64,000 nt of DNA. It comes from Streptomyces sp. YIM 121038. Its GTDB lineage: Bacteria; Actinomycetota; Actinomycetes; Streptomycetales; Streptomycetaceae. The translations under genes were made by a program, and so were the position numbers. The first letter of the stretch is position 1, and each line of letters begins with the position of its first letter. Where the stretch lies: positions 992,001-1,056,000 of the forward strand of contig NZ_CP030771.1 of NCBI RefSeq assembly GCF_006088715.1. Direction: 5' to 3'. Of the stretch, positions 1 to 64,000 are shown piece by piece. The notes under the pieces are model-generated. The model saw nothing but the letters and a program-made list of their open reading frames with translations, was not told where the DNA came from and made no database searches.

Positions 1-1158
1 ACAACCCACCCGCCACCACCGCCGCCGCGATCTCCCCCTGCGAATGCCCCACCACCGCATCCACCACCACACCAAACACCCGCCACAACCGCGCCAACGA
101 CACCATCACCGCAAACAACACCGGCTGCACCACATCCACCCGCTCAAACCCCACACCCGAACGCACCACCTCCACCAAAGACCACCCCACATACGGCTCC
201 AACGCCGCCCCGCACTCCCCCATCAACCCCGCAAACACCGCCGACTCATCCAGCAACCCACGCGCCATCCCCACCCACTGCGCCCCCTGCCCCGGGAACA
301 CAAACACCGTCCCCCCACACACCAACCCCCCACCCGACACCACACACCCCGACGGCTCACCCACCGCCAACGCCCGCAACCCCGCAAGAAGTTGCTCACG
401 ACCACCAGCCACCACGGCCCGGTGCTCGTGGAGTGCCCGGGTCTCGACCAGCGACAGCGCGACGTCGGAGATCCGTACGTCCTCCTCGCCACACACCTCG
501 AGCAGCCGCTCCGCCTGCGCCCGCACCCCCTGCGGCGACCGCGCCGACACCACCCACGCCACCGGCCCGCCCACCCCGCAAGCCCCGGCGACCACGGACT
601 CCTGCGGCACCTCCTCCACGATCACGTGCGCGTTCGTCCCGCTCACGCCGAACGACGAGACACCGGCTCGTCGCGGCCCGCCCCCGGTCTCCCAGGCGCG
701 CGCCTCGTCGAGCAGGCGTACGTCGCCGGTCGACCAGTCGACCTGCGGGGTGGGTGCGTCGACGTGGAGGGTCTGCGGCAGCAGGCCGTGGCGCATGGCC
801 AGGACCATCTTCATGACACCGGCGACACCGGCCGCCGCGGAGGTGTGGCCGATGTTGGACTTGAGGGAGCCCAGCCACAACGGCCGCCCCTCCAACCGCT
901 CCTGACCGTACGTCGCCAGCAACGCCTGCGCCTCGATCGGATCACCCAAGCGAGTGCCCGTACCGTGCGCCTCCACCGCGTCCACGTCCTTCGCCGACAA
1001 CCCCGCGTCCGCGAGAGCCGCACGGATCACCCGCTGCTGCGAAGGACCGTTCGGAGCCGTCAGACCATTGCTCGCACCGTCCTGGTTCACCGCACTGCCC
1101 CGCACCACCGCCAGCACCGGATGACCGTTGCGACGGGCATCCGACAGGCGCTCCAGGA
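1..1158. repeat. Left copy of a PKS segmental duplication (blocks 1-643 and 843-1158)
   Basis: Bases 1-643 (KS-AT linker and start of the AT of module 8) match 32953-33588 with about seven substitutions and seven missing bases in the other copy. Bases 843-1158 (C-terminal half of the KS) match 33788-34103 with only a few changes. The 200 bases between diverge clearly. The duplication continues beyond the left edge. Coding-strand codons are rich in TTG, GTG, GGT and TTT, unlike flanking PKS sequence. Confidence 0.9.
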
Positions 1159-7276: not shown

Positions 7277-7339
7277 CGTGCATCGTCACCTTCGGTACGC
7301 GGGGCGGTCGGAGGGAGGGCGTGGGGCGGCGGGGTGCCG

Positions 7340-10300
7340 TCATGGCCTGCCGAGTTCGTTGTCGATGAAGGCGAAGAGGTCGTCGTCGGTGGAGCCCATG
7401 CGGTCCTCCACGGCGTCCGCGTCCGGCCCGGTGCCGGGGCGGAGGGTCTCCAGGAGGCCCTGGAGGCGGGTCGTGAGGGCGGTACGGGCGGCGTCGTCGG
7501 GCAGGCCGTCGCGGACCGCGGCCTCCAGGCGTTCGAGTTCGGCGAGGGCGGCGGGGCCGGTCCCGGCCGTGCCGTCCTCCGGGGCGATCTCGTCGGCCAG
7601 GTGGCGGGCCACCGCGGCGGCCGTCGGGTGGTCGAAGAGCAGGGTCGCGGGCAGGTGCAGGCCGGTGGCGGCGCGCAGCCGGTTGCGCAGCTCCACCGCG
7701 GTCAGCGAGTCGAAGCCGAGGTCGAGCAGGGGCTGTTCGGTGCTGAGGGCCGCCGGGTCGGGGAAGCCGAGGACCAGGGCGGCGTGGGTGCGGACCACGT
7801 CGACGAGGACCCGGGCGCGCTGTGCCGGGGGCAGTCCCGCCAGACGGCCGCGCAGGGCGTCCGCGGCGTCGGGCCCCGGCCCTTCGCCCGCCGCGGCCCG
7901 GCGCGCCGGGGTGCGGACGAGGCCGCGCAGGAAGGCCGGCACGCCACCGGCGGCGGCCTGGGCCGCCAGCGCCCCGGTGTCCAGGCGCAGGGGCAGCAGG
8001 GCGGGCGCGTCGAGGCCGGTGGCCGTGTCGAAGAGGGCGACGCCGTCGGCGGGGGTGAAGGCGACGATGCCGCCGCGGGCGATGCGGGCCAGGTCGGCCT
8101 CGCCGAGGTGTCCGGTCATGCCGCCGCCGGTGGCCCACAGGCCCCAGCCGAGCGAGGCGGCGGGCAGGCCCCGGGCGCGGCGCCGGTGGGCGAGGGCGTC
8201 CAGGAAGGCGTTGGCCGCGGCGTAGTTGGCCTGGCCCATGCCGCCGAAGACACCGGCGATGGAGGAGAAGACGACGAACGCGGACAGGTCGAGGTCCGCG
8301 GTCAGCTCGTGCAGGTGGACGACGGCGTCCACCTTGGGGCGCAGCACCCGGTGGAGCTGGTGCGGGGTCATGTCGGCGACGACGCCGTCGTCGATGACGC
8401 CCGCGGTGTGCACGACGCCGCGCAGCGGGTGCTCCAGGGCGCCCAGGACCTTCTCCAGGGCCGCCCGGTCGGCGGCGTCGCAGGCGACGATCTCGGCATC
8501 GGCGCCGAGGGCGGCCAGTTCGGCGCGGAGCGCGTCCGCGCCGTCGGCGGCGGGGCCGCTGCGGCTGGTGAGCAGCAGGTGCCGTACGCCGTGCTCGCCC
8601 GCGAGGTGACGGGCGAGCAGGGCGCCGATGGAGCCGGTGCCGCCGGTGATCAGGACGGTGCCCTCGGGGTCCCAGCCGGGTGCGCGCGCGGGCGTGGAGC
8701 CGGGCACCCGGGCGAGGCGCGCGGTGTGCGGCTGCCCGGCGCGCAGGGCGAGTTGGGGCTCCCCCGTGCCGAGGGCCGTGGCGAGCACCGCGGCGAGGGC
8801 GGCGTCCGAGGCCGGGGTGCCGTCGGTGTCGAGCAGGACGAACCGGTCGGGGTTCTCGGTCTGCGCGGAGCGAACCAGGCCCCACACGGCGGCCTGCGCG
8901 GGGTCGGCCACGTCGTCGTCCGGGCCGACGGGCACGGCTCCGGTGGTGACGAGGGCCAGCGTGGCGCCCGCGTACCGCTCGTCGGCGAGCCAGGCCCGCA
9001 CCAGCTCCAGGGCGCTCGCGGTGAGCTCGTGGACGGACGCGGCGAGCTCCCCGGTCGTCGGCGGCAGCGCGGTCACGACGAGGGCCGGTACCTCGGCGCC
9101 CGCCTCGATCGCCGCTCCCAGGGCGGCGAGGTCCGCGTGGGCGGGCGCGAGGCCGGGCAGGGCGTCGCCGAGCACGGCGCAGGACGCGGGGGCGGTGTCG
9201 GCCACCGCGAGGGCGGGCCACTCCAGGCGGAACATGTCCGCGTGGGTGCCGGTGCGGGACTCCTGGATGCGGTCGGCCGTCACGGGCCTGAGCACCAGGG
9301 AGCGGGCCGAGGCGACCGGGGCGCCCGTGGGGTCGGCCACCGTCCACGCGACGGCGTCGCGCCCGGCCGGTGTCATGCGCAGGCGCAGCGCGGTCGCGCC
9401 CGCGGCGTGCAGCCGTACGCCGCTCCAGGAGAACGGCAGCCAGCCCTGGTCACTGCCTTCGAGGACGCCGAAGGCCAGCGCGTGCAGCACGCTGTCGAGG
9501 AGCGCGGGGTGGAGGCCGTAGCGTCCGGCGTCGGAGGCCTGTGCCTCGGGCAGGCGGGCCTCGGCGTAGACGGCGTCGCCCAGGCGCCAGGCGGCGCACA
9601 GGCCCTGGAAGGCGGGGCCGTAGGCGAAGCCGCCGTCGGCGAGGCGCGCGTAGAGGCCGTCGACGTCGAGGGGTTCGGCTCCGGCGGGCGGCCAGGCCGT
9701 GAGGTCCTCGGGCGGTGTGTGGCCGCCCGGGCTCAGGCGGCCCGTGGCGTGCCGGGTCCAGGGCTCGTCCGGCGCGGCGTGCTCGGGCCTGGCGTGGAAG
9801 GCGAAGACGCGGCCGCCGCCCGCGTCGGGGGCCTGGACGGTGAGCTGGAGGGTGACGGCGCCCCGCTCGGGCAGGGTCAGGGGCGCTTCCAGGGTGAGTT
9901 CGTCGACCTCGGCGCAGCCCAGCTCGTCGCCCGCGTGGACGGCGAGTTCCAGGAAGGCCGTGGCGGGGAACAGCGCGCCGCCGAGGACGGCGTGGTCGGC
10001 GAGCCAGGGGTGGGCGGCCACGGAGAGGCGGCCGGTGAACAGGTGGCCGCCGGTGTCGGCGAGCGGGGCGCCCGCGCCGAGCAGCGGATGCCCGGCGGGG
10101 AGCAGACCCGCGGCGGGCATGTCACCGGTGGGCGGGGTGGGCGGGAGCCAGTAGCGGGCGCGCTGGAAGGCGTACGTGGGCAGCTCGACGTGCCCGGCCG
10201 GGACCCGTGCGAACAGCGGCGCCCAGTCGACGCGCACGCCGTGGACGTGCAGACGGGCAAGGGCCGCGGTGAACGCGGCCTCCTCCGGCGCGTCCTTGCG

Positions 10301-13300
10301 AAGCAGCGGGACCGCGGCGACGCCGTCGGCGGGCCCGGTCAGGCACTCCTGGCCGAGCGCGGTCAGGGAGCCGTCGGGGCCGAGTTCCACGTACGCGGTG
10401 GCGCCTTCGGCCTCCAGGGTCCGTACGGCGTCGAGGAAGCGGACGGTGGAGCGGACGTGGCGGACCCAGTGGCCGGGGTCGCGCAGCTCCTCGGCGGTGG
10501 CGACGGCGCCGGTCAGGTCGGAGACGACGGGGATCCGCGGCGCGTGGTAGGTGACCCGTTCGGCGACGGCGCGGAAGTCGTCCAGCATGCCGTCCATGTG
10601 CGGGGAGTGGAAGGCGTGGCTGACGGTGAGGCGCCGGGTCTTGTGGCCCTTCTCCCGCCAGTGGGCGGCGATCTCCTCGACGGGCGCCGCGTCGCCGGAC
10701 AGGACGGTGGCGGCGGGCCCGTTGACGGCGGCCACCGCGATCTCGCCCTCGCGGCCCGCGAGCTGGGGCAGCAGGTCCGGCTCGGGGACGGTGAGGGAGA
10801 CCATCGCGCCGCCGCCGGGCATGGCCTGCATCAGGCGGCCGCGCGCGGCCACGAGGGCGGCGGCGTCCGGCAGCGAGAGCACCCCGGCGACGTGCGCGGC
10901 GGCGAGCTGTCCCACGGAGTGCCCGGTGACGAGGTCGGGGCGCACCCCGTACGACTCCAGGAGCCGGTGCAGGGCGACGCCGACGGCGAACAGGGCGGGC
11001 TGGGTGTAGGCCGTGGTGTGGAGCAGGGCCGCGTCCGCGCTGCCCTCAGGCGCGGTGATCACGTCGCGCAGCGGGCGGTCGAGGAGCGGGTCGAGTTCCG
11101 CGCACACCGCGTCGAAGGCGTCGGCGAACGCCTCGAAGCGCTCGTACAGTTCCGCGCCCATGCGCAGGCGCTGGCTGCCCTGCCCGGGGAAGAGGAAGGC
11201 GGTCCTGCCCGCCCGGCCGGTGGCGCCCTCGACGACGTCGGTCGAGGGGGTGCCGTCGGCGAGCGCGGCCAGCGCGGCCAGGAGGCCTTCGCGGTCGGCG
11301 GCGACGAGGACGGCCCGGTGTTCGAAGGCGGTGCGGCCGGTGGCGAGGGCCTTGCCGACGGCGTCGGGGTGCCGCTCCGGTGCGGCGGTGACGCGGTCGA
11401 GCAGGCGGCGGGCCTGGGCGCGCAGGGCGTCCTCGCCGCGGGCGGCGAGCAGCCAGGGCAGACGGCGGCCCGTCGGCGGCGCCGCGACGGGCGGCGCGGG
11501 GTCGGGGACGTGCTCCAGGATGGTGTGCGCGTTGGTGCCGCTCACGCCGAAGGACGACACGCCGGCGCGGCGCGGGCGGTCCCCCTCGGGCCAGGCGGTG
11601 TGCTCGGTGACCACGTGGACGCGGCCCGCGGTCCAGTCCACGTACGGCGTCGGCTCGTCGACGTGGAGGGTGGCGGGGAGCGCGCCGTGCCGCATGGCCA
11701 GGACCATCTTGATGATGCCCGCGATGCCCGCGGCGGCCTGGGCGTGGCCGATGTTGGACTTCAACGAGCCCAGGTACAGCGGGGTTTCGCGCTCCTGCCC
11801 GTAGGTGGCGAGCAGGGCCTGGGCCTCGATGGGGTCGCCGAGGCGGGTGCCGGTGCCGTGGGCCTCGACGGCGTCGACGTCGCCGGGGGCGAGGCCCGCG
11901 CCCGCGAGGGCCTGGCGGATGACGCGCTGCTGGGAGGGGCCGTTGGGGGCGGTGAGGCCGTTGCTGGCGCCGTCCTGGTTGACGGCGGAGCCGCGGACCA
12001 GGGCGAGCACGGGGTGGCCGTGGCGGCGGGCGTCGGACAGGCGCTCCAGGAGCACCATGCCCGCGCCCTCGGCCCAGGCGGTGCCGTCGGCGGCGGCCGC
12101 GAACGGCTTGCAGCGGCCGTCGGCGGCAAGTCCGCGCTGGCGGGAGAACTCGACGAACGCGCCGGGCGTGGCCATCACCGTGACGCCGCCCGCGAGCGCG
12201 AGGGAGCACTCGCCGGAGCGCAGCGCCTGCGCCGCCATGTGGACGGCGACGAGCGAGGAGGAGCAGGCCGTGTCCACGGTCACGGCGGGGCCCTCAAGGC
12301 CGAAGGTGTACGCGACGCGCCCGGAGGCCACGCTGCCCGCGCTGCCGATGCCGAGGTAGCCCTCGAACTCCTCGGACGGCTCGGTGACCCGGGAGCCGTA
12401 GTCGCGGTAGCTGGAGCCGACGAAGACGCCGCCGTCGCTGCCCTTGAGGGTCCGCGGGTCGATGCCCGCCCGTTCGAAGGCCTCCCAGGCGGTCTCCAGG
12501 AGGAGCCGCTGCTGGGGGTCGACGGCGAGGGCCTCGCGCGGCGAGATGCCGAAGAAGGCGGGGTCGAAGTGGGCGGCGTCGTAGAGGAATCCGCCCTCGC
12601 GGGCGTAGGTGCGGCCGACCTTCTCCGGGTCCGGGTCGTAGAGGCCCTCCAGGTCCCAGCCGCGGTCGGCGGGGAACGCGGAGACGGCGTCGGTGCCGTC
12701 GGCGAGGAGCCGCCAGAAGTCCTCGGGGGTCTGTACGCCGCCGGGGAAGCGGCAGCTCATCGCGACGATCGCGACCGGGTCGTCGTCGGTCGCGGCCGCC
12801 GCGGCGGGTACGGGGGCCGTCGTGGGGGCGGGCGCCGTGCCGAGCAGTTCCTCGCGCAGGTGGTCGACGAGCGCGGCGGTGGTGGGCCGGTCGAAGACGA
12901 GCGTGACGGGCAGGCGCAGGCCGGTGGCCCCGGCGACGCGGTTGCGCAGCTCCACGGCGGTCAGCGAGTCGAAGCCGAGGTCCTTGAAGGCACGCTCCGG
13001 TGCGATCGCGGCGGGGTCGTCGTGCCCGAGCACGTCGGCGGCCAGGGCGCGCACCAGGTCCGCGAGTTCCTGGGTGCGTTCGGCGTCGCCGAGCCCGGCG
13101 AGCCGCGCCACCAGGGCGTTCTCCGCGGCGCCCGGCGCGGCGGCGCGCTCGGCGAGGGCGCCGCGCGCCTCGGGCACGTCGGCGATCAGGGCGCTGGGCC
13201 GCAGCGCGGTGTAGGCGCGGACGAAGCGGTCCCAGGCGAAGTCGGCGACGATCAGCCGGGTCTCGTCGTCGGCCAGGGCCTGCCAGAGGGCCTCGACGGC

Positions 13301-22261: not shown

Positions 22262-22279
22262 GGGTGTCTCGCTTCTCCC

Positions 22280-36516: not shown

Positions 36517-36693
36517 GCCATGGCTCCTCAGGACGTACGGGACAGGGACGGCTGGGCGCGCGCCGGTACGGCGCGGCCGTGCGGGGGCCCGCCGGGGCAC
36601 GGCGGATCCGCGCGCCCGGGTACGGGCACGGCGCGCGGGCACCTCAGCGGGCGGAGGCGGGGTGACGGGGTGGGGGTCGGTGGGGGCGCTGCG

Positions 36694-37800: not shown

Positions 37801-37801
37801 A

Positions 37802-38773: not shown

Positions 38774-38912
38774 GCTCACTCCTGTTGCGCTTTGAACATC
38801 TCTTACCGCAGATGCCGCATGGAAGCAGCACCGACTTCCGCCGTCGCCACGGCCTTCGCAGGCCCGGGGGAGGAAATCCACAACACCCAAGAAATACGGC
38901 ACAGGCCACCAT

Positions 38913-40352: not shown

Positions 40353-41111
40353 CTAGCCGACGGCCACGGCTCCGCGCAGCGCCTCGCCCACCACCGCGAT
40401 CACCTCCGGCGCGCGCGAGCTGAGGTAGAAGTGGCCGCCGCGGAACTCCCGCAGCCGGAACGCGGCCGTGGTGTGGGCGCGCCACGCGTCGGCTTCCCCG
40501 ACCGTCGACTTGGGGTCGTCGTCGCCCACCAGGGCGGTGATCGGGCAGCCGAGCACCGCGTCCACGGAGCCGTACGTCTCGATGGCCCGGTAGTCGCTGC
40601 GGATGGCGGGCAGCACCATGCGCAGCAGTTCCTCGTCGCCGAGCACCTTCGCGTCGGTGCCGCTCAGGGTCTTCACATCGGCCAGGAGCCCCTCGTCGTC
40701 CCGCTGGTGGACGTTCTCCACGCGCCGCGTCGACGGTGCCCGCCGGCCGGAGGCGAACAGCATCGCGAGCGTGTGCCCGTCCTCCTCCAGCCTGCGGGCT
40801 ACCTCGAACGCGAGGATCGCGCCCATGCTGTGGCCGAAGAACACCACGGGCCGGTCGAACAGCGGTGCCACCACGGGCGCCATCCGGTCCGCCAGTACGC
40901 CGATGTCGTCCACGTTCGGTTCGTTGCGCCGGTCCTGGCGGCCCGGGTACTGGAGGGCCACCACGTCGCCACCGCTCGCGAGCGCGGCCGAGACGGGGTG
41001 GTAGAAGCTCGCCGATCCGCCCGCGTGCGGGAAGCAGACGAGCCGGACCGGGGCGTCCGGTGCGGGGTGGAACCGGCGGAGCCAGAGGTCGCTGCCGTCG
41101 GTAGGTGTCAT
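40353..41111 (-). CDS. Type II (editing) thioesterase
   Basis: A 252-residue alpha/beta hydrolase of the stand-alone thioesterase family that removes aberrant acyl groups from stalled ACPs of a PKS. Catalytic Ser95 sits in GHSMG, Asp lies in VGDDDP (197-199) and His227 in GGHFYL; the N-terminal LVCFPHAGGSASFY oxyanion segment is typical. The length matches the family. Start ATG 41111 (MTPTDGSDLWLRRF) is preferred to a 54-codon-longer frame, because that extension is low-complexity and derives from a tandem repeat; the ribosome site is weak (GGAC). It follows the terminal PKS gene by 184 bases and is probably read through from it. Its final stop is followed by the shared hairpin terminator. 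Confidence 0.95.
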   Translation of the reverse strand: MTPTDGSDLWLRRFHPAPDAPVRLVCFPHAGGSASFYHPVSAALASGGDVVALQYPGRQDRRNEPNVDDIGVLADRMAPVVAPLFDRPVVFFGHSMGAILAFEVARRLEEDGHTLAMLFASGRRAPSTRRVENVHQRDDEGLLADVKTLSGTDAKVLGDEELLRMVLPAIRSDYRAIETYGSVDAVLGCPITALVGDDDPKSTVGEADAWRAHTTAAFRLREFRGGHFYLSSRAPEVIAVVGEALRGAVAVG

Positions 41112-41130
41112 GTGCGTCGTCCGTTCTGCT

Positions 41131-41220
41131 GTCGTGGCCGGAGCTGAGTACTGCTGTCGTGGTCGAGTCGAGTGCTGCTGTCGCGGTCGGAGCCGCGTAC
41201 TGCCGTCGTGCTCGGGGCCG
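41131..41220. repeat. Imperfect 24-25-bp tandem repeat between PKS and type II thioesterase
   Basis: Four successive units start GTCGTGGCCGG (41131), GTCGTGGTCGA (41156), GTCGCGGTCGG (41180) and GTCGTGCTCGG (41205), the first three ending in TACTGCT-like sequence. The array fills most of the non-coding gap upstream of the thioesterase. It may be a leader element or simple expansion; no function is evident. Confidence 0.75.
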
Positions 41221-41295
41221 CGTCGGACGCGGGTCGGTTCGGTCGCGTCCGACGCGGCTCGGGCCTGGGTCACCGGTGAAGCTGGGGCCGGTGGG

Positions 41296-50200: not shown

Positions 50201-52569
50201 ATCGGGATGGCCGGCGTCCCGTAGGTGACGTTGCGGGCGACGGCGCGGAAGTCGTCGAGGACGGCGTCCACGTGCGGCGAGTGGAACGCGTGGCTGACCC
50301 TCAGGTACCGGGTCTTCCCGCCGCTCTCCCGCCAGGCCGCGTCGATCGCGGCCACGGCGTCGGCGTCGCCCGCGACCACGGTGGACTCGGGGCCGTTGAC
50401 CGCGGCGACGTCCACCGTGCCGCGGCCGTGCTCGGCGAGCAGGCGCCGGACGGTGGGCTCGTCGGCGCGCAGTGAGAGCATCGCCCCGCCCTCGGGCAGC
50501 GCCCCCATCAGCCTGCCGCGGGCCGCGACGAGGGCGCACGCGTCGGTGAGGGAGAACACGCCCGACACGTGGGCCGCCGCCAGTTCGCCGATGGAGTGGC
50601 CCGCGAGGAACTGCGGGGCGAGGCCCCACGCGGTGACGAGGCGGAACAGCGCCACCTCGATCGCGAACAGCGCGGGCTGCGTGTACGTGGTGAGGTCCAG
50701 CAGGGCGGCGGCCTGGGTGTCGGGCTCCGCGAAGAGCACCTCCCGCAGGGGCCGGTCCAGATGCGGGTCCAGACCGGCGCAGACCTCGTCGAGGGCCCGC
50801 GCGAACACGGGGAACTCGCCGTACAGTTCACGGCCCGTGCCCGCCCGCTGGCTGCCCTGGCCGCTGAACAGGAAGGCGAGCCTGCCGCGGGTGCCCACCG
50901 TGCCGCGCACCAGGTGGGGCGCTTCGCCGCCGGTGGCCAGGGCCTCGACGCCGCGCAGCAGTTCCGCGCGGTCCGTGCCGACGACGGCGGCCCGGTGCTC
51001 CAGGGCGGTCCTGCTCAGGGCGAGGGCGTGGCCGACGTCCACCGCCCGGTCGTCGCGGCCGTCCAGGTGGCGCAGGAGGGCGGCGGCGCGCTCGCGCAGC
51101 GCGACGGGGTCGTTGCCGGAGAGGACCCACGGCACCGCCTCGGTCAGGACCGGCTCGACGGGCTCTTCCACGGCGTCGTCGGCGTCCTCGGCCGGGGCCT
51201 GTTCGAGGACGACGTGGGCGTTGGTGCCGCTGATCCCGAACGACGACACCGCCGTCCGGCGCGGCTGCCCCGTCTGCGGCCACGGCCGCGCGTCGGTCAG
51301 CAGCTCCACGGCGCCCTCCGACCAGTCGACGTGCCGGGAGCGCTCGCCGACGTGCAGGGTGGGCGGCAGGACGCCGTGCCGCAGGGCCATGACCATCTTG
51401 ATCACGCCCGCCACTCCGGCGGCCGCCTGGGTGTGGCCGATGTTGGACTTCACGGACCCCAGCCACAGCGGCTGTCCCGCGGGGCGCTCCTGGCCGTAGG
51501 TGGCGAGGAGCGCCTGGGCCTCGATGGGGTCGCCGAGGGTGGTGCCGGTGCCGTGCGCCTCGACGGCGTCGACCTGGGCCGCGGTCAGGCCCGCGCTGTC
51601 CAGGGCCTGGCGGATCACGCGCTGCTGGGAGGGGCCGTTGGGCGCGGTCAGGCCGTTGGACGCGCCGTCCTGGTTGACCGCCGAGCCGCGTACGACGGCC
51701 AGGACCCGGTGGCCGTTGCGCCGCGCGTCGGACAGCCGCTCCAGGAGCAGCATGCCTGCGCCCTCGCCCCAGCCGGTGCCGTCGGCGTCGTCGGAGAACG
51801 ACTTGCACCGGCCGTCCGCGGCGAGGCCGCGCTGCTTGCTGAAGCCCACGAACGTGTGCGGGGTCGTCATCACCGTGACGCCGCCCGCGAGCGCGAGGGT
51901 GCACTCGCCGGAGCGCAGCGCCTGCGCCGCCAGGTGCAGCGTGACCAGGGACGACGAGCAGGCGGTGTCCACCGTGACGGCGGGCCCCTCCAGCGCGAAC
52001 GTGTACGACACGCGCCCGGAGGCGACGCTGCCGAGCCCGCCGGTGCCCAGGAAGCCCTCCAGGCCCTCGGGCACCGACCGCAGGCGTGCGGTGTAGTCGT
52101 GGTACATCACGCCTGCGAACACGCCCGTCCTGCTGCCGCGCAGGGACGACGCGTCGATCCCGGCCCGCTCGAACGCCTCCCAGGAGGTTTCGAGCAGTAG
52201 CCGTTGCTGCGGGTCCATGGCGAGGGCCTCGCGGGGCGAGATCCCGAACACGCCGGGGTCGAAGTCGCCCGCGTCGTGCAGGAATCCGCCCTCGGTGCGG
52301 AACACCCGGTCGGGGTCCTCGGGGTCGGACAGCTCGACGTCCCCCCAGCCCCGGTCGGCGGGGAAGGGCGTCACGCCGTCGCGTCCTTCGGCGACCAGCT
52401 GCCACAGGTCCTCCGGGGAGCGTACGTCGCCCGGGTAGCGGCAGCTCATGCCGATGATGGCGATCGGTTCCTGCTCACCGGCCTCGACCTCGCGCAGCCG
52501 CCGCCGCGTCTCGCGCAGATCGCCGGTGACCCGCTTGAGGAAATAGCGGAGCTTGTCCTCGTTTTCCAT
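41296..52569 (-). CDS. Terminal modular type I PKS, two modules plus thioesterase
   Basis: A 3757-residue last PKS that ends the chain. Start ATG 52569 ([15 protein letters not shown] docking helix) has GGAG about ten bases upstream; a start ten codons earlier lacks one. First module: KS 52470-51190; AT 50880-49850, GHSIGE and HAFH (malonyl); DH 49780-48960, motif [10 protein letters not shown] intact; KR 48880-47770, LDD (B-type); ACP near 47530. Second module: KS 47345-46080; AT 45780-44750, GHSQGE and YASH (methylmalonyl); DH 44690-43880 with [10 protein letters not shown], where the motif Gly is Gln; KR 43820-42560, LDD; ACP near 42300 (GLDSL). TE 42030-41300: nucleophile Ser in GYSSGG (near 41745), Asp in LLDTY, His in GDHFTIM. 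The TE should release the chain, most likely by macrolactonisation. Predicted product end: a 2-methyl dienoate or longer polyenoate if the last DH works. Preceded by another PKS gene with a 48-base gap. Confidence 0.97.
43608..43649. repeat. Perfect 21-bp tandem duplication in the terminal PKS
   Basis: CAGGACCGTCCTCCGCGAAG followed by one variable base occurs twice, encoding a doubled FAEDGP motif in the DH-KR inter-domain region. The near-perfect identity suggests a recent slip event. Confidence 0.85.
48029..48430. repeat. Near-identical KR block, terminal PKS copy
   Basis: 402 bases covering the N-terminal, NADPH-binding half of the KR (GASGMLGG through the catalytic Ser region) match 53495-53896 with very few differences, in the same frame, 5466 bases apart. 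It belongs to the first module of the terminal PKS. Confidence 0.88.
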
Positions 52570-52617
52570 GCTGTCTCTACTCCAGGGAACGTCGAGCAAG
52601 TGGGGTGACCGGACGGG

Positions 52618-55600
52618 TCAGGAGATGCCGAACTCTTTGCCGAGCAGGTCGAACACCTCGTCGTCCGTGGCGGCGTCGAGGTCGTCGGCCGTCTGCGGGA
52701 CGGCGTCGGCGCGGCCGTCGCGCCATGCGGCCAGGAGGGCCGACAACCGGGCGCCGACCCGGTCGTCCTCGTCGTCGCCGGGCTTGATCGCGGCGAGGCT
52801 CGCCTCGATGCGGCTCAGCTCGGCGAGCAGCGGCGCCACTCCTCCCGGCTCGTCGGCGGCGAGCGCTCCGGTGAGGTGCCCCACCAGGTCGAGCAGGGTC
52901 GGATGGTCGAAGATGAGCGTGGCGGGCAGGCGGAGCCCGGTGGCCGCGTTGAGCCGGTTGCGCAGGTCGACGGCGGTCAGCGAGTCGAAGCCCAGCTCGG
53001 TGAACGCGCGCCGCTCGTCGACCGCTTCGGGTCCGGGGAACGCGAGCACGGCCGCGACCTGCGCGCACACCAGGTCCGTCAGGGCGGACGTCCGCTCGCC
53101 CGGCGTCAGCGCGGCCAGGCGCTCCCGCAGCGCGGCGGCGGGGTCGCCTCCGGCCTGGGCCGCCCTGCGGGACGTCGTGCGCACGAGGCCGCTGAGGACG
53201 GGCGGCACCGCCGGGAGTTCCCGCACGGCCCGCAGGTCGAGGCGCATCGGCACGACGACCGGGTCGGCCCCGAGGGCCACCGCGTCGAACAGTTCGAGGC
53301 CTTGTTCGGCGCTCAGGCCCACGGCTCCGGTCTGGGCCATCCGCGCGCCCATGCCGTCCTCCGTGGCCCACAGGCCCCAGGCGAGGGAGGTCGCGGGCAG
53401 GCCCTGGGCCCGGCGGTGCCGGGCGAGGGCGTCGAGGAACGCGTTGGCCGCCGCGTAGTTGGCCTGGCCGGGCGAGCCCAGCGTGCCCGTCACCGAGGAG
53501 AACAGGACGAACGCGGACAGGTCGAGATCGCGGGTCAGTTCGTGCAGGTGCCGGGCGCCGTCCACCTTCGGCCGGAACACCGTGTCGATCCGCTCCGGAG
53601 TGAGCGAGCCGATCGTGCCGTCGTCCAGGACGCCCGCGGTGTGCACCACGGCGGTCACCGGGTGCTCGGCAAGCAGCGCCGCCACCTCGTCCCGCTCCGC
53701 CACATCACACGCCACAACAACGACCTCGGCACCGAGCCCGGTCAACTCGTCGTACAGCGCGCCCACTTGGCCGCGCCGACTCGCCAGCACCAACCGCCGC
53801 ACCCCGTGCCGCACCACCAAATGCCGCGCCACCAGACCACCGAGCATCCCGCTGGCACCCGTCACCAGGACCGCACCCTCACCGAAGCCCGACTCCGCGG
53901 ACTCCGGGGACTCCGCGGGGCGGGCGCGAACGAGCCGCGGCGCGAACACGTCGCCCGCACGCACGGCCAGTTCGGGCTCCGGGCTTCCGACGGCCGCCTT
54001 CCAGCCGTCCGCGTCGTCGACGTCCACGAGCACGACCCGGTCCGGGTTCTCCGCCCGCGCCGTGCGCACCAGGCCCCACACGGCGGCCGCCGCCAGATCC
54101 GGTACGTCGTCCTCGGCCGCGACGGCCACCGCGCCGCGGGTCACCAGGACGAGGCGCGACGCCGCGCACCGCTCGTCGGCCAGCCAGCCCCGCACCAGCT
54201 CCAGAGCGGCGTGCACCTGATGCCGCACCGCGTCCGTGCCGTGGGGCTCGGCGCAGTGGACCACGGCGTTCTCCGGCAGGGTCTCCCCCGCTTCCAGGGC
54301 CGAGCGCAGCGCGGCCCAGTCCGTGAACTCCGCGACCGACCGGGCGCTTCCGGACGCCGCCGCGGCCGGCACCCAGTCGAGGCGGAACAGCGACTCCCAG
54401 GCCTGCCGCGACACCGTTCCCGACACCGGGCGCAGGACCAGCGAGTCGATCGTGGCCACGGGAGCGCCCGTGCCGTCGGCGATCGTCAGGGACACGCCGT
54501 CCGAGCCCGTGGGCGCCAGGCGCACCCGCAGCACCGTCGCGCCCGAGGCGTGCAGCCGCACGCCCGACCACGAGAACGGCAGCCTGCCGGGGCCGTCGGC
54601 GTCGCCCATCAGCCCGATGGCGTGCAGGGCCGCGTCGAGGAGCGCCGGGTGCAGACCGAAGCCGCCCGCGTCCACGCCGTCCGGCAGGGTGACCTCGGCG
54701 AGCACGGCGTCGCCCGTGCGCCAGGCCGACCTCAGGCCCTGGAACAGCGGCCCGTAGTCGAACCCGCCGTCGGCCATGCGGTCGTAGAGCCCGTCGAGGT
54801 CCACGGCCTCCGCGTCCGCGGGCGGCCAGGCGGCGGAGTCGGCCGGCGGCACGTCAGGGGCGGCCACGAGCGCGCCGCTCGCGTGCCGGACCCACACGTC
54901 CGCGTCGTCGCCCCGCGCGTGCACCGTCACCGTGCGGCGGCCGGAGTCGTCCGCGCCGCCGACCCGCACCTGGACGCGTACGCCGCCGCGCTCGGGCACC
55001 ACCAGGGGCGCCTCCAGCGTCAGTTCCTCCACCGCGGCGCAGCCGACCCGGTCACCGGCGTGGACCGCCAGTTCGAGGAAGGCCGTGCCGGGCAGCAGGA
55101 TCGAGCCCTGGATCACGTGCTCGGCCAGCCACGGGTGGGACTCCAGCGAAAGCCGGCCGGTGAAGAGCTCCTCGTCGGAGTCGGCCGTGTCGATGATCGC
55201 GCCGAGCAGCGGGTGGCCCGCCGAGCCGAGCCCGGCGGCGTCCAGGTCGCCCGCGCCCACCCCGGCGTCCAGCCAGTAGCGCCGGTGCTGGAAGGCGTAC
55301 GTCGGCAGGTCCACGCGGCGCGCGCCCCGACCGGCGAAGAAGGCCTCCCAGTCCGGCCGTACGCCCCGCGTCCACAGCTGTGCCAGCGCGGACGTCAGCG
55401 CGGACTCCTCGGTCCTGTCGGCCCGCAGCACCGGCACGAACCCGGCCTCCGGCGCCGACTCCTGTCCCAGGGCCGACAGCGTGCCGCCCGGGCCGATCTC
55501 GACGAAGGTGGTCAGGCCCTCGTCGACGAGCGCGCTGACGGCGTCGGCGAACCGCACGGACTGGCGTACGTGGCTCACCCAGTACTCCGGCGAGGCCAGT

Positions 55601-58600
55601 TCCTCGGCGGTCGCCCGCACGCCCGTGAGCGTCGACACGATCGGCATCGCGGGCGCCGCGTACGACACGCCGTCCAGGACCGTACGGAACTCATCGAGCA
55701 TCGGGTCCATCAGCGGCGAGTGGAAGGCATGGCTCACCCGCAGCTCGGTGACCTTGCGGCCCGCCGCACGCCAGCGCTCGGCCACCGCCTCGACATCGGC
55801 GGCGACACCGGAAATGACCACGGACGACGGGCCGTTGACCGCCGCGACTCCGACGGTCTGCGGCAGCTCGGGCGCGACCTCGGCCTCCGTGGCCCGGATC
55901 GCGGCCATCGCGCCGCCCTCGGGCAGCGCCTGCATCAGCCCGGCACGAGCCGACACCACCTTCGCGGCATCGGCCAGCGACCACACCCCCGCGACGTGCG
56001 CGGCGGCCAGCTCACCGATGGAGTGACCGGCCAGGACGTCGGGGCGGATCCCCCACGACTCCAGGAGGCGGAACAGCGCGACCTCGACCGCGAACAGCGC
56101 GGGCTGGGTCACCCCCGTCTCGTTCAGCGCGTCGGCGTCCTCGCCGAACAGGACCTCGCGGACCTGGGGATCGAACTGCGCGAGCACCTGCTCCAGGGCC
56201 TCGGCGAACACCGCGTACCGGCCCGCCAGTTCACGCCCCATGCCCAGGCGCTGCGAGCCCTGGCCCGAGAACAGGAAGCCCACCCCGCCGACGGCGACGG
56301 AGCCCGCGACCAGACCGGGCGACTGCCGCCCCTCGGCCAGGGCGGTCAGGCCGTCGAGGAGCGCCGTGCGGTCGTCGCCCACGGCGACGGCCCGGTGTTC
56401 GAAGGCCGAGCGCGTGGTCGCCAGCGAGTAGCCGACGTCCGGCAGGCCGAGCCGCGGCTCGGCGGCGACGCGCTCGCGCAGCCGGGCCGCCTGCTCCCGC
56501 AGCGCCTCCTCGCTCCGGGCCGAGAGGACCCAGGGCACCACGCCGTCGGCCGGAGCCGGGGCGCGGTCGTCGTCCGGCGCGTACTCGATGATGGTGTGCG
56601 CGTTGGTGCCGCTCACGCCGAACGACGACACGCCCGCCCGCCGCAGACGGCCGGTCTCCGGCCACGGCCGGGGCTCCGTGAGGAGCTCCACGTCGCCCGC
56701 GGACCAGTCGACCTTCGACGAGGGCTCGTCCACGTGCAGGGTGCGCGGCAGGACGCCGTGGCGCATCGCCATGACCATCTTGATGACACCGGCGACACCG
56801 GCGGCGGCCTGGGTGTGGCCGAGGTTCGACTTGATCGAGCCGAGCCACAGCGGCTGGTCAGCGGGTCGGTCCTGGCCGTAGGTGGCGAGGACGGCCTGGG
56901 CCTCGATGGGGTCGCCGAGGGTGGTGCCCGTGCCGTGGGCCTCGACCGCGTCCACGTCGGAGGTGGTCAGGCCCGCGCTCGCCAGGGCCTGCCGGATCAC
57001 GCGCTGCTGCGAGGGGCCGTTGGGCGCGGTCAGGCCGTTGGACGCGCCGTCCTGGTTGACGGCCGAGCCACGGACGACGGCCAGGACGGGGTGGCCGTTA
57101 CGCCGGGCGTCGGAGAGGCGCTCGACGAGGAGCATGCCGACGCCCTCGCCCCAGCCGGTGCCGTCGGCGCTGTCGGAGAACGACTTGCACCGGCCGTCGG
57201 AGGAGAGGCCGCGCTGGCGGCTGAAGTCGACGAACGTGCTGGGGGTCGCCATCACGGCGACACCACCGGCCAGCGCCATCGTGCACTCGCCCTTGTGCAG
57301 CGCCTGGATCGCCCAGTGCAGGGCGACGAGCGAGGAGGAGCACGCGGTGTCGACGGTGACGGCGGGCCCTTCCAGGCCCAGCGCGTAGGCGACGCGGCCG
57401 GAGGCGACGCTGCCGGACCCGCCGGTGCCGAGGTAGCCCTCGACGTCCTCCGGGACGGAGCGGAGCCGCGACACGTAGTCGTGGTACATCACGCCCGCGA
57501 ACACGCCCACGGCCTTGCCCCGGGCGGAGTTCGGGTCGATGCCCGCCCTCTCGAAGGCCTCCCAGGAGGTTTCGAGGAGGAGGCGCTGCTGCGGGTCCAT
57601 GGCCAGCGCCTCCCGGGGGGAGATGCCGAAGAACGCCGGGTCGAACAGGTCGGCGTCGTGCAGGAAGCCGCCCTCGCGGGTGTACGAGGTGCCGGTGCGT
57701 TCGGGGTCCGGGTCGTAGAGGGCGTCCACGTCCCAGCCCCGGTTGGCGGGGAACTCGCTGATGGCGTCGGTGCCGTCGAGGACGAGCCGCCACAGGTCCT
57801 CGGGGGAGCCGACCCCGCCGGGGAACCGGCAGCTCATGCCGACGATGGCGATCGGCTCGTCGGTCACCGCCACCGCCGTGGGCGCGGGCGCGGCCACGGC
57901 CGGGGCGCCCGCGAGCTCGGCGCTGATGAACGCGGCGAGCGCGGCGGGGTTCGGGTGGTCGAAGACGAGCGTGGCGGGCAGCCGCAGCTCGGTGGCCGCG
58001 TTGAGGTGGTTGCGCAGCTCGACGGAGCTGAGCGAGTCGAAGCCCAGCTCCCGGAAGGCCCGGTCGGGCTCGACGGCGTGGGCCGAGCTGTGGCCGAGCA
58101 CCGCCGCCGCGTGGGTGCGGACGAGGTCGAGCAGCGCCTTCTCCCGCTCGCTCTCGGTCAGGCCCGCGAGGGACTGCGCGAGCGCGGACCGGCTCGCGGG
58201 ATCGGCGGTCCTGCGCGCGGTGTTGCGCACCAGGCCGCGCAGCAGGTGGAACACGGGCTGGGTGCGTGCCTGCCGCCGCAGCACGGCGAAGTCCATCGGC
58301 ACGGGCGCGAGCAGCGCCCGCCCGGTGGAGCCCGCGGCGTCGAACAGGGCCAGGCCCTCGGCCGGGCCGATCGGGAGGGCGCCGCCGCTGGTGATGCGGC
58401 GTACGTCGGTGTCGTCGAGGCTGCCCGCCATGCCGTCGGCCGTGTCCCACAGGCCCCAGGCGAGGGAGGTCGCGGGCAGGCCCTGGGCGCGCCGGTGCTG
58501 GGCGAGGGCGTCGAGGAAGGTGTTGGCCGCCGCGTAGTTGCCCTGGCCGGGGCCGCCGAAGACACCGGCGGCGGAGGAGAACACCACGAAGGCCGACAGG

Positions 58601-61600
58601 CCGGCGTCCCGGGTCAGGTCGTGCAGGTGCCAGGCCGCGTCGACCTTCGGCCGGAACACCGCGTCGATCCGCTCGGGCGTCAGCGAGCCGATCGTGGCGT
58701 CGTCGAGCACACCGGCGGTGTGGACGACGGCGGACACCCGGTGCCGGGCCAGGAGCGCGGCCAGCGCCTCGCGGTCGGCCACGTCGCACGCCGCGAGGAC
58801 GACGTCGGCGCCCTGCGCGGTGAGTTCCTCGCGCAGCGCCTCGGCGCCCTGGGCGGCGGCGCCGCGCCTGCTGACCAGGAGCAGACTGCGCACGCCGCGC
58901 TCCGCGACCAGGTGCCGGGCGACCAGGCCGCCGAGGGTGCCCGTCGCGCCGGTGACGAGCACCGCGTCCGGGCCGAAGCCGGGGTCGTCCACCACGTTCC
59001 GCCGCGCCCTGGCCAGGCGCGGGGCGCTCGCGGCCCCCGAGCGCACGGCGAGCTGCGGTTCGCCCGTCGCGAGGGCCGACGGCAGCGCGTCGACCGAGGC
59101 CGCCTCCTCGTCGAGGTCGACCAGGACGATCCGGTCGGGGTTCTCGGACTGGGCGGAGCGCAGCAGGCCCCAGACGGTGGCGTGCGCGAGGTTCGGCACG
59201 TCCTCGTCGTCGGCGGGGGCGACCGCGCGCCGCGTCACGACGGCCAGGCGCGCCGTGCCGAACCGCTCGTCGGCCAGCCAGGTCCGCACCGCGGCCAGGG
59301 CCCAGGCCGCGGCCTCGTGCGCGCCGGCGGCCGGGTCCTCGGTGGCCGCGACCGGGCACGCCAGGGCGACGAAGCCGGACAGTTCGGCCGCGGCCGACCG
59401 CGCCAGGTCCGCCAGGTCGGTGGTCCACTCCACCGCCGGGGCCCCGTCGTCGGACAGCGGTACCGGCACCCAGTCGACGCCGAACAGCGCGTCGTCGCGG
59501 TCGTCGGCGGCGGCCCGGACCGGGGCGGCCGGGCGCAGCACCAGGGAGTCGACGGTGGCCACCGGGGCGCCGGAGGCGTCCGCGACCGTCAGGGACACCC
59601 CGTTGGGGCCCGTGGGCGCGAGGCGCACCCGCAGTGCCGTGGCGCCGGCGGCGTGCAGGCGCACACCGGACCAGGAGAACGGCAGCTTGCCGGTGGCGTC
59701 GGCCGCGCCCGTGAACCCGGTGGCGTGCAGCGCCGCGTCGAGGAGCGCGGGGTGCAGGCCGAAGCCGTCCGCCTTGACGCCCTCGGGCAGCGCGACCTCG
59801 GCGAAGACCTCGCCGCCCGCGCGCCACGCGGCCCGCAGCCCCTGGAACACGGGGCCGTAGCCGAACCCTCCGTCGGCCATGGCCTCGTAGAACCCGTCCA
59901 GGTCCACGGCCTCGGCCCCGGCGGGCGGCCAGGCGGCCAGCGCGTCGCCCTCGGACCGGCCGCCCGCGCGCAGCACACCGGTGGCGTGCCGGGTCCACGC
60001 GCGTTCGTCCATGTCGCCGGTGCTGGAGTGGAAGGTCAGCTCGCGCCTGCCGGACGCGTCCTCGGCGCCGACCCACACCTGTACCCGTACCGCACCGCTC
60101 TCGGGCAGTACGAGCGGCGCCTCCAGCGTCAGTTCCTCCACCAGGTCGCAGCCGACCTGGTCCCCCGCGCGGATCGCCAGGTCGAGGAACGCCGTACCGG
60201 GCAGCAGCACCGAGCCCATGACCGCGTGGTCGGCCAGCCACGGGTGCGTCCGGACCGACAACCGGCCCGTCAGGAGCGCCCCGTCGGTACCGGCGAGGGC
60301 GACGCTCGCCCCCAGGAGCGGGTGCTCGGCCGCCCCGAGCCCGGCCGCCGATACGTCACCGAACAGAGGCAGCACGTCGGGCCAGTACCGCTCGCGCTGG
60401 AACGCGTACGTCGGCAGGTCCACGCGGCGCGTGCCCCGGCCGGTGAAGAAGACCTCCCAGTCGACGCGGACACCACGAATGTGGAGCTGCCCGGCGGCCG
60501 CCGTGACGGCCACCGCTTCGGGCCGGTCGCCGCGCAGCACCGGCACGAAGGCCGCGTCCGGCGCGGACTCCTGACCGAGCGCCGACAGCGTCCCGCCAGG
60601 GCCGACCTCGACGAACGTGTCCACACCCTCGCCCGCCAGCGCGCTCACGGCGTCAGCGAACCGTACGGACTCCCGTACGTGGCGGACCCAGTACTCCGGC
60701 GACGCCAACTCCTCAGCGCTCGACCGCGCGCCCGTGAGCGTCGACACGATCGGGATCGCGGGCGCCTCGTACGACACGCTCTCCAGCACCCGGCGGAACT
60801 CATCGAGCATCGGGTCCATCAGCGGCGAGTGGAACGCATGACTGACCTTCAACCGGGTGACCTTACGGCCCGCCGCACGCCAGCGCTCGCCCACCGCCTC
60901 CGCGTCAGCAGCGACACCCGAAATCACCACCGAGGAAGGCCCGTTGACCGCCGCGATACCCACCGTCTCCGGCAGGTCCGAGGCAACCTCTTCCTCGGTG
61001 GCCTGGATCGCCACCATCGCACCACCCGACGGCAGCGCCTGCATCAGACCCGCACGCGCAGACACCACCTTCACCGCGTCCGCGAGCGACCACACGCCCG
61101 CGACGTGCGCGGCGGCGAGTTCACCGATCGAGTGACCCGCCAGTACGTCCGGACGTACACCCCACGACTCAAGAAGACGGAACAGCGCCACCTCGACCGC
61201 GAACAACGCAGGCTGCGTCACCCCCGTCTCGTTCAGGGTTGCCGCGTCCTCACCGAACAAGACCGCGCGGACCTCGGGATCCAGGAGCGCCAGGACCTCG
61301 TCGAGGGCTTCGGCGAACACCGGGTACTGGTCGGCCAGTTCACGGCCCATGCCCAGGCGCTGCGAGCCCTGCCCGGAGAACAGGAAGCCCACCCGGCCGG
61401 GCTCGTCCGCCACGCCCGAGACCACGCCGCCGGACACCCGGCCCTCGGCCAGCGCCTCCAGCGCGGCCAGCAGTTCGTCGCGCTCGGCGCCGACCACCAC
61501 CGCGCGGTGCTCCAACACCGCACGCGAGGACACCAGCGAACGCCCCACATCCGCCGGGGACAGCTCAGCCGACGCCTCCACGAAGGACCGGAGCCGCGCC

Positions 61601-64000
61601 GCCTGGTCCCGCAGCGCCTCCACGCTCCGGGCCGAGAGGACCCACGGCACCAGTCCGCCGCCGTACGCGGGCTCCGAGGCGGTCTCCTGTTCCGCCTCGG
61701 GGGCCTGCTCCACGATGACGTGCGCGTTCGTGCCGCTGAATCCGAAGGAGGACACGCCCGCGCGCCACGGCCGGTCGACGGCGGGCCACCGCCGGTCGTC
61801 GGCGAGCAGTTCCACCGCGCCCGCCGACCAGTCCACGTGCGGCGACGGCTCGTCCACGTGCAGGGTGCGCGGCAGCACGCCGTGGCGCATCGCCATGACC
61901 ATCTTGATGACACCGGCGACACCGGCGGCGGCCTGGGTGTGACCGATGTTCGACTTCACCGACCCCAGCCACAGCGGGCGGTCCTCGGGGCGGCCCTGGC
62001 CGTAGGTGGCCAGGAGCGCCTGGGCCTCGATCGGGTCGCCGAGCTTGGTGCCCGTGCCGTGGGCCTCGACCGCGTCCACGTCGGAGGTGGTCAGGCCCGC
62101 GCTCGCCAGGGCCTGACGGATCACGCGCTGCTGCGAGGGGCCGTTGGGCGCGGTCAGGCCGTTGGACGCGCCGTCCTGGTTCACCGCCGAACCACGGATC
62201 ACGGCGAGCACCTCGTGGCCGTTGCGCCGGGCGTCCGAGAGGCGCTCCACGAACAGCATGCCGACGCCCTCACCCCACCCTGTGCCGTCCGCGCCCGCGC
62301 CGAAGGCCTTGCAGCGGCCGTCCTCGGCGAGGCCGCGCTGGCGGCTGAACTCGATGAACGAGCTGGGCGTCGACATCACGGTGACGCCGCCCGCGAGGGC
62401 CATCGCGCACTCGCCCTTGTGCAGCGCCTGCACCGCCAGGTGCAGCGCCACGAGGGACGACGAGCACGCCGTGTCCACCGTGACGGCGGGGCCTTCGAGG
62501 CCGAAGGTGTACGAGAGGCGGCCCGAGGCGACGCTGGCGGCGTTGCCGGTCGCGGCGTAGCCGCCCACGTCCTCGGTGGCACCGGCGAGGACCCACCCGT
62601 AGTCCTGCATGTTCGAGCCGACGAACACGCCGACCCGTTCACCGCGCAGGGAGTCCGGGGCGATGCCCGCCCGTTCGAAGGCCTCCCAGGAGGTTTCGAG
62701 GAGGAGGCGCTGCTGCGGGTCCATGGCGAGGGCTTCGCGCGGCGAGATCCCGAAGAAGCCCGCGTCGAAGGCGCTCACACCGGAGAGGAACGCGCCCGAC
62801 CGGGAGTAGGAGGTGCCCACGGAGTCCGGGTCGGGGTCGTAGAGGCCCTCCAGGTCCCAGCCGCGGTCGGCCGGGAAGTCCGACACCGCGTCCCCGCCCG
62901 CCAGGAGCACCCGCCACAGGTCCTCCGGGCTCGTCACGCCGCCGGGGAACCGGCACGCCATCCCGACGATCGCGATCGGCTCGTCGGACACGCCCGCCAC
63001 GGTGACCGGGGCGGGCGCGGCCGGGGCCGCGCCGCAGAGCTCGTCCCGCAGATGGGCGGCCAGCGCGGCCGCGTTCGGGTAGTCGAAGACGAGGGTCGTG
63101 GGCAGGGCGGCCCCGGTGACCTCGTTGAGCCGGGCGCGCAGCTCCACCGCCGTGAGCGAGTCGAAGCCCAGCTCCCTGAAGGCGCGCGTCGCGGGGAGCG
63201 CGTCGCCGGAGGCGTGCCCGAGGACGGCGGCCGCCTCGTAGCGGACGAGGTCGGTGAGCTGCCGCTCCTGCTCGGCCTCGTCGAGACCGGCGAGCCGCTG
63301 CGCCAGGGCCGACGAGCCCTGTTCCACCGCGGCGGTCTCGAACGCGGCCCGCACCTGCGGCAGTTCGCTCAGGAGGGGGCTCGGGCGCTGCGCCATGAAC
63401 GTGCCCGCGAACCGCTCCCAGTCCACGTCGGCGATGGCGACGTTCCCGTCACCGCTTTCGAGGGCCGTGGCCAGGCCCACGATCGCGACGGCCGGGGCCA
63501 TCGACGGCAGGCCCCGGCGCCGCAGCTGCGCGGCGGCGTCCCGGCCCGCGTTGGCGACCATGCCGCCGTCGGCCCACGGGCCCCAGGCCACCGCCGTGGC
63601 GGGCAGACCCGTGGCCCTGCGGTGCTCGGCCAGCGCGTCCAGGTAGGCGTTCGCCGCGCCGTAGGCGGCCTGGGCGCCGCTGCCCCACACGCCGGAGATC
63701 GACGAGAACAGCACGAACGCGTCCAGCGGCGTGTCCGCGAGCAGTTCGTGCAGGTGCCTGGCGCCGACGGCCTTGGCCGCCAGCACGTCGGCGAACCCGC
63801 CCGGGTCGGCCGGGTCGACGTCCGCGAGGAGGGCGGAGCGCTCGATGCCCGCCGCGTGCACGACCGCGTCGAGCGCGGGAACACCGGCCAGCAGCGCCGC
63901 CACCGACGCGCGGTCCGTCATGTCGCAGGCGGCGAACGTCACCCGCGCGCCCGACTCCACGAGGGCGGCTTCCAGCTCCGCGGCGCCCTCGGCCTCGGCG
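52618..64000 (-). CDS. Modular type I PKS, end of one module and two complete DH-KR modules (5' end off the right edge)
   Basis: The open frame runs to the right edge without a start. It opens inside a KR whose catalytic region reads [19 protein letters not shown]; the Trp and absence of LDD mark A-type. ACP near 63155. Next module: KS 62980-61700; AT 61385-60370, GHSIGE and HAFH (malonyl); DH 60335-59530, [10 protein letters not shown] intact; KR 59440-58290, LDD; ACP near 58035. Last module: KS 57865-56580; AT 56280-55270, malonyl; DH 55235-54410, [10 protein letters not shown] intact; KR 54380-53230, LDD; ACP near 52980. The C-terminal tail ending [12 protein letters not shown] is a docking region that should meet the MENEDK helix of the next protein. 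No ER is present, so both full modules leave double bonds. With the downstream gene this gives four consecutive dehydrating modules, hence a conjugated polyene next to the carboxyl end. Confidence 0.96.
53495..53896. repeat. Near-identical KR block, penultimate PKS copy
   Basis: Partner of 48029-48430. Immediately beyond the block this copy has an extra nine-base unit encoding a duplicated SPESAES-like linker. Confidence 0.88.

What the first reader, a model, noticed from the sequence alone, without database searches (positions are those of the whole stretch)
1..64000. Probable expanded-ring plecomacrolide (bafilomycin-like) assembly line
Seen: loading AT-ACP, then mm/KR, malonyl/KR, mm-like/no KR, mm/KR, FAGH/KR, malonyl/DH-KR, mm/DH-KR, with gene breaks after modules 3 and 6. 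Established knowledge: bafilomycin-type synthases use this order for modules 1-7, and the KR-less module 3 gives the hemiketal ketone. The other end differs: three malonyl DH-KR modules then methylmalonyl DH-KR-TE, predicting a 2-methyl polyenoate. If the hydroxyl made by module 5 closes the ring, modules 5-8 plus the five seen at the right edge need at least a 20-membered ring. I recall 24-membered bafilomycin-class compounds (iseolides) being reported, which would fit about 15 modules, but I cannot check this.
Basis: partly seen in the sequence, partly recalled or inferred. Interest (0 to 1): 0.9.

Follow-up and report, generated by a model that had tools for sequence, protein, structure and literature searches.

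The report
Bafilomycin cluster beside second macrolide synthase
The window straddles two separate antibiotic assembly lines: the start of an ordinary bafilomycin-type one and the end of an unrelated, uncharacterised polyene-type one, which only look like a single giant synthase because the window cuts both off.

Summary
I fetched the flanks in the window's own genome (C1:932001-1156000). The left line does not run into the right one: it continues left through modules 8-11 and ends in its own thioesterase (C1:971140-971763). It is loading plus 11 modules in five genes, followed by methoxymalonyl genes in the order published for the S. griseus bafilomycin cluster. 11 of 11 of its KSs are best matched by the same-position KS in each of two bafilomycin-type clusters; 0 and 1 of 14 right-line KSs are. 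That is a complete 16-membered plecomacrolide synthase with Orf2/Orf3-like fumaryl-transfer genes beside it. The right line is another synthase, loading plus 14 modules, starting near C1:1107.7 kb and ending in the TE at window 41338-41967. Its product is unassigned; its domains predict a 2-methyl-tetraene macrolactone with a C15 ketone. Cautions: gene 1 of the left line changes reading frame between KS1 and AT1, so activity is uncertain; C2 methoxy versus methyl rests on an AT tree plus recalled chemistry. Ordinary overall: a new member of a known kind next to an orphan macrolide line.

The parts
33175..36642 (-). Left line, gene 1, first frame: loading AT (35272-36219)-ACP (34906-35091)-KS1 (34081-34830)
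   Evidence: L009 and L038 carry gene 1 in one open frame of 4877 and 4716 aa, G355 and G379 in one of 4808 and 4738 aa
22280..33292 (-). Left line, gene 1, second frame: AT1 mm-KR-ACP; M2 KS-AT malonyl-KR-ACP; M3 KS-AT (YAAH)-ACP without KR
7340..22261 (-). Left line, gene 2: M4 mm KR; M5 AT FAGH KR; M6 malonyl DH-KR
1..7276 (-). Left line, gene 3 (runs to C1:987490): M7 mm DH-KR and, mostly outside the window, M8 mm DH-ER-KR
   Evidence: genes 4 and 5 with M9-M11 and TE lie at C1:971089 to about 987.5 kb
36694..37905 (-). Orf3-like adenylate-forming enzyme (fumarate activation inferred); likely real start further in (368 aa in P0001)
   Evidence: no Pfam or NCBIfam hit; sources name relatives arylcarboxylate reductase, one PaaK-like, some with PF00501; found beside the match in 9 of 75 loci, among them the baf-type L009, L011, L012, L038
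37802..38902 (-). Orf2-like fumaryl transferase (inferred); sources name relatives ACP S-malonyltransferase or malonyl transferase
   Evidence: next to Orf3 in G355 and G379 too
39621..40274 (+). LuxR-family regulator; which line it serves is unproven
   Evidence: PF00196; a weak LuxR match (41 bits) lies after the TEII in G406
40353..41273 (-). Type II thioesterase, most likely belonging to the right line
   Evidence: PF00975; directly follows the last PKS gene here and in G435 and G406 (415 and 477 bits), against 294 bits for the TEII near the bafilomycin-type lines of G355 and G379
41296..52599 (-). Right line, gene 5: M13 malonyl DH-KR; M14 mm DH-KR-ACP-TE (TE 41338-41967)
52618..64000 (-). 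Right line, gene 4 (runs on to C1:1059650): end of M10, M11 and M12 malonyl DH-KR
   Evidence: genes 1-3 with loading and M1-M9 lie at C1:1059655-1107701

Best explanation
Two complete, independent modular type I PKSs lie head to tail on the minus strand. The left one is a 16-membered plecomacrolide (bafilomycin-type) synthase: isobutyryl-type loading, 11 extensions, the KR-less module 3 leaves the ketone that forms the hemiketal, the module-5 hydroxyl is the nucleophile with which its own TE closes the ring, FkbH-type genes supply methoxymalonyl-ACP and Orf2/Orf3 probably add fumarate. The right one is a loading + 14-module line of another family that makes a 2-methyl-tetraene macrolactone (22-, 26- or 30-membered, depending on the hydroxyl used) with a ketone at C15. 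Shown: gene order, domains, both TEs, homology. Inferred: specificities, ring sizes, tailoring, activity.
For: Own flanks: the left line ends in a TE at C1:971140-971763 after M11; the right line begins with loading AT-ACP at C1:1105257-1106555. Left KSs: 11 of 11 in the same position against G379 and against G355; right KSs: 0 of 14 and 1 of 14. Five genes 4-3-2-2-1 and 3HCDH-ACP-ACAD-FkbH-OMT as in PMC3679948. Right line: a 16-module cluster in G435 shares it (loading AT 79%, KS1 and KS2 89%), and a TEII follows the TE gene in both G435 and G406. Of 75 loci, 9 show an Orf3 hit and in none of these 9 was a right-line TE found at E <= 1e-10 (up to 10 kb upstream held).
Against: Only about 4.7 kb separates the lines, and the LuxR gene between them is unassigned, so shared control is open. 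Gene 1 of the left line changes frame, so either the sequence or the line may be faulty. AfsR (BafG) and the C5N genes of the published cluster were not among the 22 flanking ORFs given to Pfam; other flanking ORFs were not scanned. The reference clusters G379 and G355 are unnamed, so their products are not known. The C2 substituent rests on one AT tree.
Confidence: 0.94

Rival explanations
1. One expanded-ring (20- to 24-membered) plecomacrolide line whose last modules are those at the right edge.
For: Left modules are plecomacrolide-type and the window shows a TE only on the right.
Against: The left line has its own M8-M11 and TE, the right line its own loading module and M1-M10; right KSs are not position-matched to plecomacrolide KSs; the concanamycin-like clusters G437 and G550 hold 14 KSs of plecomacrolide-type modules, not a second line.
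Confidence: 0.02
2. The left line takes methylmalonyl in module 11, so the product is hygrolidin-type (C2-methyl, recalled) rather than bafilomycin-type (C2-methoxy).
For: M11 AT carries YASH, as ordinary mm ATs do; G355 has a YASH M11 AT inside the mm clade, so the residue type varies in the family; the M11 matches L116 and L119 also lack the MAW stretch.
Against: The own M11 AT groups with the terminal ATs of the concanamycin-like clusters G550 and G437 (support 0.999); the MAW/MAF-x-x-PVD stretch is shared by these and by L115, L117 and L118 (3 of 5 M11 matches looked at). Concanamycin has C2-methoxy (recalled). PMC3679948 says that sequence did not separate the two specificities.
Confidence: 0.3
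3. The left line is not functional in this strain because gene 1 is interrupted between KS1 and AT1.
For: Two frames with a 118-base overlap; the four relatives in which I saw a whole gene 1 (L009, L038, G355, G379) have one frame.
Against: The catalytic motifs read in the rest of the line are intact; the spot holds a run of 7 Gs, a common place for assembly errors (general knowledge); AT1 is 98% identical to AT8.
Confidence: 0.25

Closest known systems
Bafilomycin synthase, S. griseus DSM 2608 (PMC3679948)
   Same: Loading + 11 modules in five genes of 4-3-2-2-1 (loading counted), malonyl-type ATs in extension modules 2 and 6, TE in the last gene, methoxymalonyl genes in the same order
   Different: Orf2/Orf3 homologues sit upstream of gene 1 here, not downstream; acyl-CoA ligase, amide synthetase and ALAS, listed upstream there, were not among the ORFs scanned here; gene 1 lies in two frames
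Bafilomycin-type clusters in unnamed G379 and G355
   Same: Same domain string in loading and 11 of 11 modules; KS orthology 11 of 11
   Different: M11 AT is FAGH in G379 and WASPVEVDYASH in G355, MAFHIPVDYASH here; Orf2/Orf3 lie downstream of the PKS there
Concanamycin-like clusters G550 and G437
   Same: Terminal AT groups with the own M11 AT; plecomacrolide-type modules and, in both, Orf2/Orf3 matches
   Different: 14 KSs; one AT with an atypical motif that may be ethylmalonyl-type (inference); 18-membered product (recalled)
Right-line relatives G435 and G406
   Same: G435: same loading AT motif (GSSVGE/LAAH), terminal malonyl DH-KR then mm DH-KR-TE, TEII next. G406 (contig incomplete): last three KSs matched at 88-93%, TEII next
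   Different: G435 has 16 modules, with a KR-less M9 where the own line has M8 with a KR lacking catalytic residues; products unknown to me. G357, whose TE is 54% identical, shows a four-module line only

Membership tests
16-membered plecomacrolide (bafilomycin) synthase | Loading AT-ACP plus 11 extension modules ending in a TE | tested here: met
16-membered plecomacrolide (bafilomycin) synthase | Five PKS genes with modules 4-3-2-2-1 (loading counted) | tested here: met
   (paper) against 10, 13, 51; gene 1 is in two frames here
16-membered plecomacrolide (bafilomycin) synthase | Extension module 3 without KR, module 8 with DH-ER-KR | tested here: met
   (ER motif LVHAAAGGVG in M8); same in G355 and G379; the paper parts read do not list these domains
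16-membered plecomacrolide (bafilomycin) synthase | Position-by-position KS homology to other members | tested here: met
   11 of 11 against G379 and 11 of 11 against G355; right-line control 0 of 14 and 1 of 14; G379 and G355 are unnamed
16-membered plecomacrolide (bafilomycin) synthase | Methoxymalonyl-ACP genes (3HCDH, ACP, ACAD, FkbH, OMT) | tested here: met
16-membered plecomacrolide (bafilomycin) synthase | Methoxymalonyl at C2 (module 11) | tested here: inconclusive
   AT tree favours it, motif alone does not
16-membered plecomacrolide (bafilomycin) synthase | AfsR regulator BafG near the PKS | tested here: inconclusive
   not among 22 flanking ORFs given to Pfam; not all flanking ORFs were scanned
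16-membered plecomacrolide (bafilomycin) synthase | Product made | not testable with these tools
   no culture data
Expanded-ring (24-membered) plecomacrolide synthase | About 15 modules in one line with a single TE | tested here: not met
   two TEs, two loading modules

The most novel reading that the evidence does not exclude
The two lines form a functional supercluster: a V-ATPase-inhibiting plecomacrolide and an undescribed polyene macrolactone with a C15 keto or hemiketal group, brought together in this lineage and controlled jointly through the regulator between them.
Probability: 0.1. Interest if true: 0.5.

Novelty: new member of a known kind. Interest (0 to 1): 0.25.

Why it matters
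It removes a false lead: no expanded-ring plecomacrolide is encoded here. What remains is a further bafilomycin-type cluster and, next to it, a 14-module line with relatives in a few congeners whose product I could not assign. The second is the better target for product discovery.

Tried and rejected
Rejected: a single line, by the flanks. Rejected: iseolides as 24-membered bafilomycin-class compounds. Of the eight papers listed two contain the name; the passages read in those two give no support, one placing them among analogues of the 36-membered cyphomycin. The original iseolide paper was not seen. Led nowhere: naming the organism through contig C2 against plasmids and naming the right line through plasmid-borne TEs (best 43%). 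NCBIfam gave nothing for Orf3. A KS remnant at the start of the right line's loading gene, which I suspected from reading it, scored only 2.5 bits, so I do not claim it. PMC3679948: parts 1-3 of 4 of the text read; PMC7827423, PMC10669366 and PMC8621598: passages only; other papers appeared only in search listings. Beyond no search for a right-line compound in print was made, so I do not claim that it is unpublished.

Full report
Setting. The window is C1:992001-1056000 of an 11.1-Mb, two-contig genome. I fetched C1:932001-1156000, called genes by codon-position G+C and located PKS domains with seeds taken from this window. The joined 224,000 bases hold no N. The gene caller left out left-line gene 4 and called gene 1's second frame only; both were found as open frames.

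Observation.

Left line. Beyond the window it continues with M8 mm DH-ER-KR, M9 mm KR, M10 mm DH-KR and M11 DH-KR-TE, and stops at C1:971089. Downstream follow a 3-hydroxyacyl-CoA dehydrogenase, an ACP, an acyl-CoA dehydrogenase, an FkbH-like frame and an O-methyltransferase on the other strand. PMC3679948 reports five genes of 4, 3, 2, 2 and 1 modules (loading counted as a module), malonyl ATs in its modules 3 and 7 (extension modules 2 and 6) and the same five methoxymalonyl genes in the same order. I ran the same annotation on two clusters of unnamed congeners, G379 and G355, found through Orf2: both have the same domain string in loading and 11 of 11 modules. Best-match positions of KSs: own left line 11 of 11 in G379 and 11 of 11 in G355; own right line 0 of 14 and 1 of 14. 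With the lactone closed by the module-5 hydroxyl, modules 5-11 give a 16-membered ring (established knowledge for bafilomycin; the 16-membered ring is also stated in PMC3679948).

Tailoring. Window 36694-37905 and 37802-38902 match an Orf3/Orf2 pair near the methoxymalonyl genes in G355 and G379. In S. lohii, Orf3 activates fumarate and Orf2 transfers it to the C21 hydroxyl (PMC7827423, passages). I did not have the S. lohii sequences, so the assignment rests on gene neighbourhood, source names and the papers' descriptions.

C2 substituent. The M5 AT has FAGH and groups with the M5 ATs of G355 and G379; G379 has FAGH in M11 too. The own M11 AT has YASH but groups with the terminal ATs of G550 and G437 (0.999). 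Of five M11 matches from named genomes looked at, three (L115, L117, L118) share the MAW-type stretch and two (L116, L119) do not. G550 and G437 have 14 KSs and look like concanamycin clusters; G550's contig has the length that I recall for S. scabiei 87.22, and concanamycin carries a C2 methoxy group (both recalled). I therefore favour methoxy at C2 at about 0.7.

Right line. Loading AT (GSSVGE/LAAH)-ACP; M1 mm KR; M2 malonyl DH-ER-KR; M3 malonyl KR; M4 malonyl DH-KR; M5 malonyl KR; M6 mm (YAPH) DH-KR; M7 malonyl DH-KR; M8 malonyl DH-KR; M9 and M10 malonyl KR; M11-M13 malonyl DH-KR; M14 mm DH-KR-TE. The M2 ER is 44% identical to the left-line M8 ER but lacks some 60 residues and has an altered nucleotide-binding motif, so I take it as inactive. 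The M8 KR reads HAAAS where the other 23 of the 24 KRs aligned read Y-x-A-A-N, so I predict a ketone there. Colinear reading: 2-methyl-2,4,6,8-tetraenoate, OH at C11 and C13, ketone at C15, alkenes at C16 and C18 with 18-methyl, OH at C21, alkene at C22, OH at C25, alkene at C26, 28-methyl, OH at C29. This is inference. In G435 a 16-module cluster shares loading, first and last modules; there the mm (YAPH) module M8 is followed by a KR-less M9, while here the mm (YAPH) module M6 is followed by M7 and then by M8 with the defective KR.

Are the two lines linked elsewhere? Right TE: 37 of 392 sampled congeners at E <= 1e-55, the own genome included; four others lie at 54-73% identity (G406, G328, G435, G357). 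In a sample of 297 family members only G291 (46%) besides the own genome passed 1e-60; among 61 relatives, two besides the own genome passed 1e-55, at 42-47%. Orf2: 9 of 392 at E <= 1e-60, the own genome included; four others at 58-62% (G355, G379, G437, G550) and four at 36-40%. The two samples of 392 were drawn by the same request and look the same, which I did not verify; no genome is in both four-member sets. G379 and G437 also appear, but with TE matches of only 41%. No Orf2/Orf3 match appeared in the stretches read of G435 (92 kb, ending 11 kb beyond the TEII), G357 (100 kb) and G406 (40 of 57 kb); G328 was not fetched. Of 75 loci, 9 show Orf3 and 5 show a right-type TE at E <= 1e-10 (31-45% identity), none both. 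So the side-by-side arrangement looks peculiar to this lineage, within the limits of samples and contig ends. Close kin of the left line exist: 99% identity over the 401 M11 residues compared, in Streptomyces sp. MNP-20, and a 94% Orf2 in Streptomyces sp. NPDC053474. I could not see whether these carry the right line.

Against my reading. Gene 1 is split; AfsR and the C5N genes of the published cluster were not among the 22 flanking ORFs scanned; LuxR and perhaps other control may be shared; the reference clusters are unnamed. None of these revives a single line, since both lines have a loading module and a TE.

Verdict. New member of a known kind next to an orphan line; interest low.

Noticed in passing
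window 33175-33301: Gene 1 of the left line is in two frames meeting between KS1 and AT1, in a stretch with a run of 7 Gs; the four relatives in which a whole gene 1 was seen have one frame.
   Followed up: partly
window 32318-33244 and C1:991366-992304: AT1 and AT8 of the left line are 98% identical in protein, within a 2.8-kb tract of 89% DNA identity, which suggests gene conversion. The ATs of modules 1, 4, 8 and 10 also cluster together within G355 and within G379.
   Followed up: partly
C1:1064953-1065462: KR of right-line module 8 lacks the catalytic Tyr and Asn (HAAAS); the related cluster G435 has a module without KR.
   Followed up: partly
C1:1095.9-1096.7 kb (L006): Right-line module 2 carries an ER with an internal deletion; no ER match was seen in module 2 of G435.
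   Followed up: partly
C1:1102674-1103612 and window 44836-45774: Right-line AT1 and AT14 are 90% identical to each other.
   Followed up: no
G000:C1:8.03-8.24 Mb and C1:776-824 kb: The genome is PKS-rich: 118 PF00109 matches, with further large clusters.
   Followed up: no
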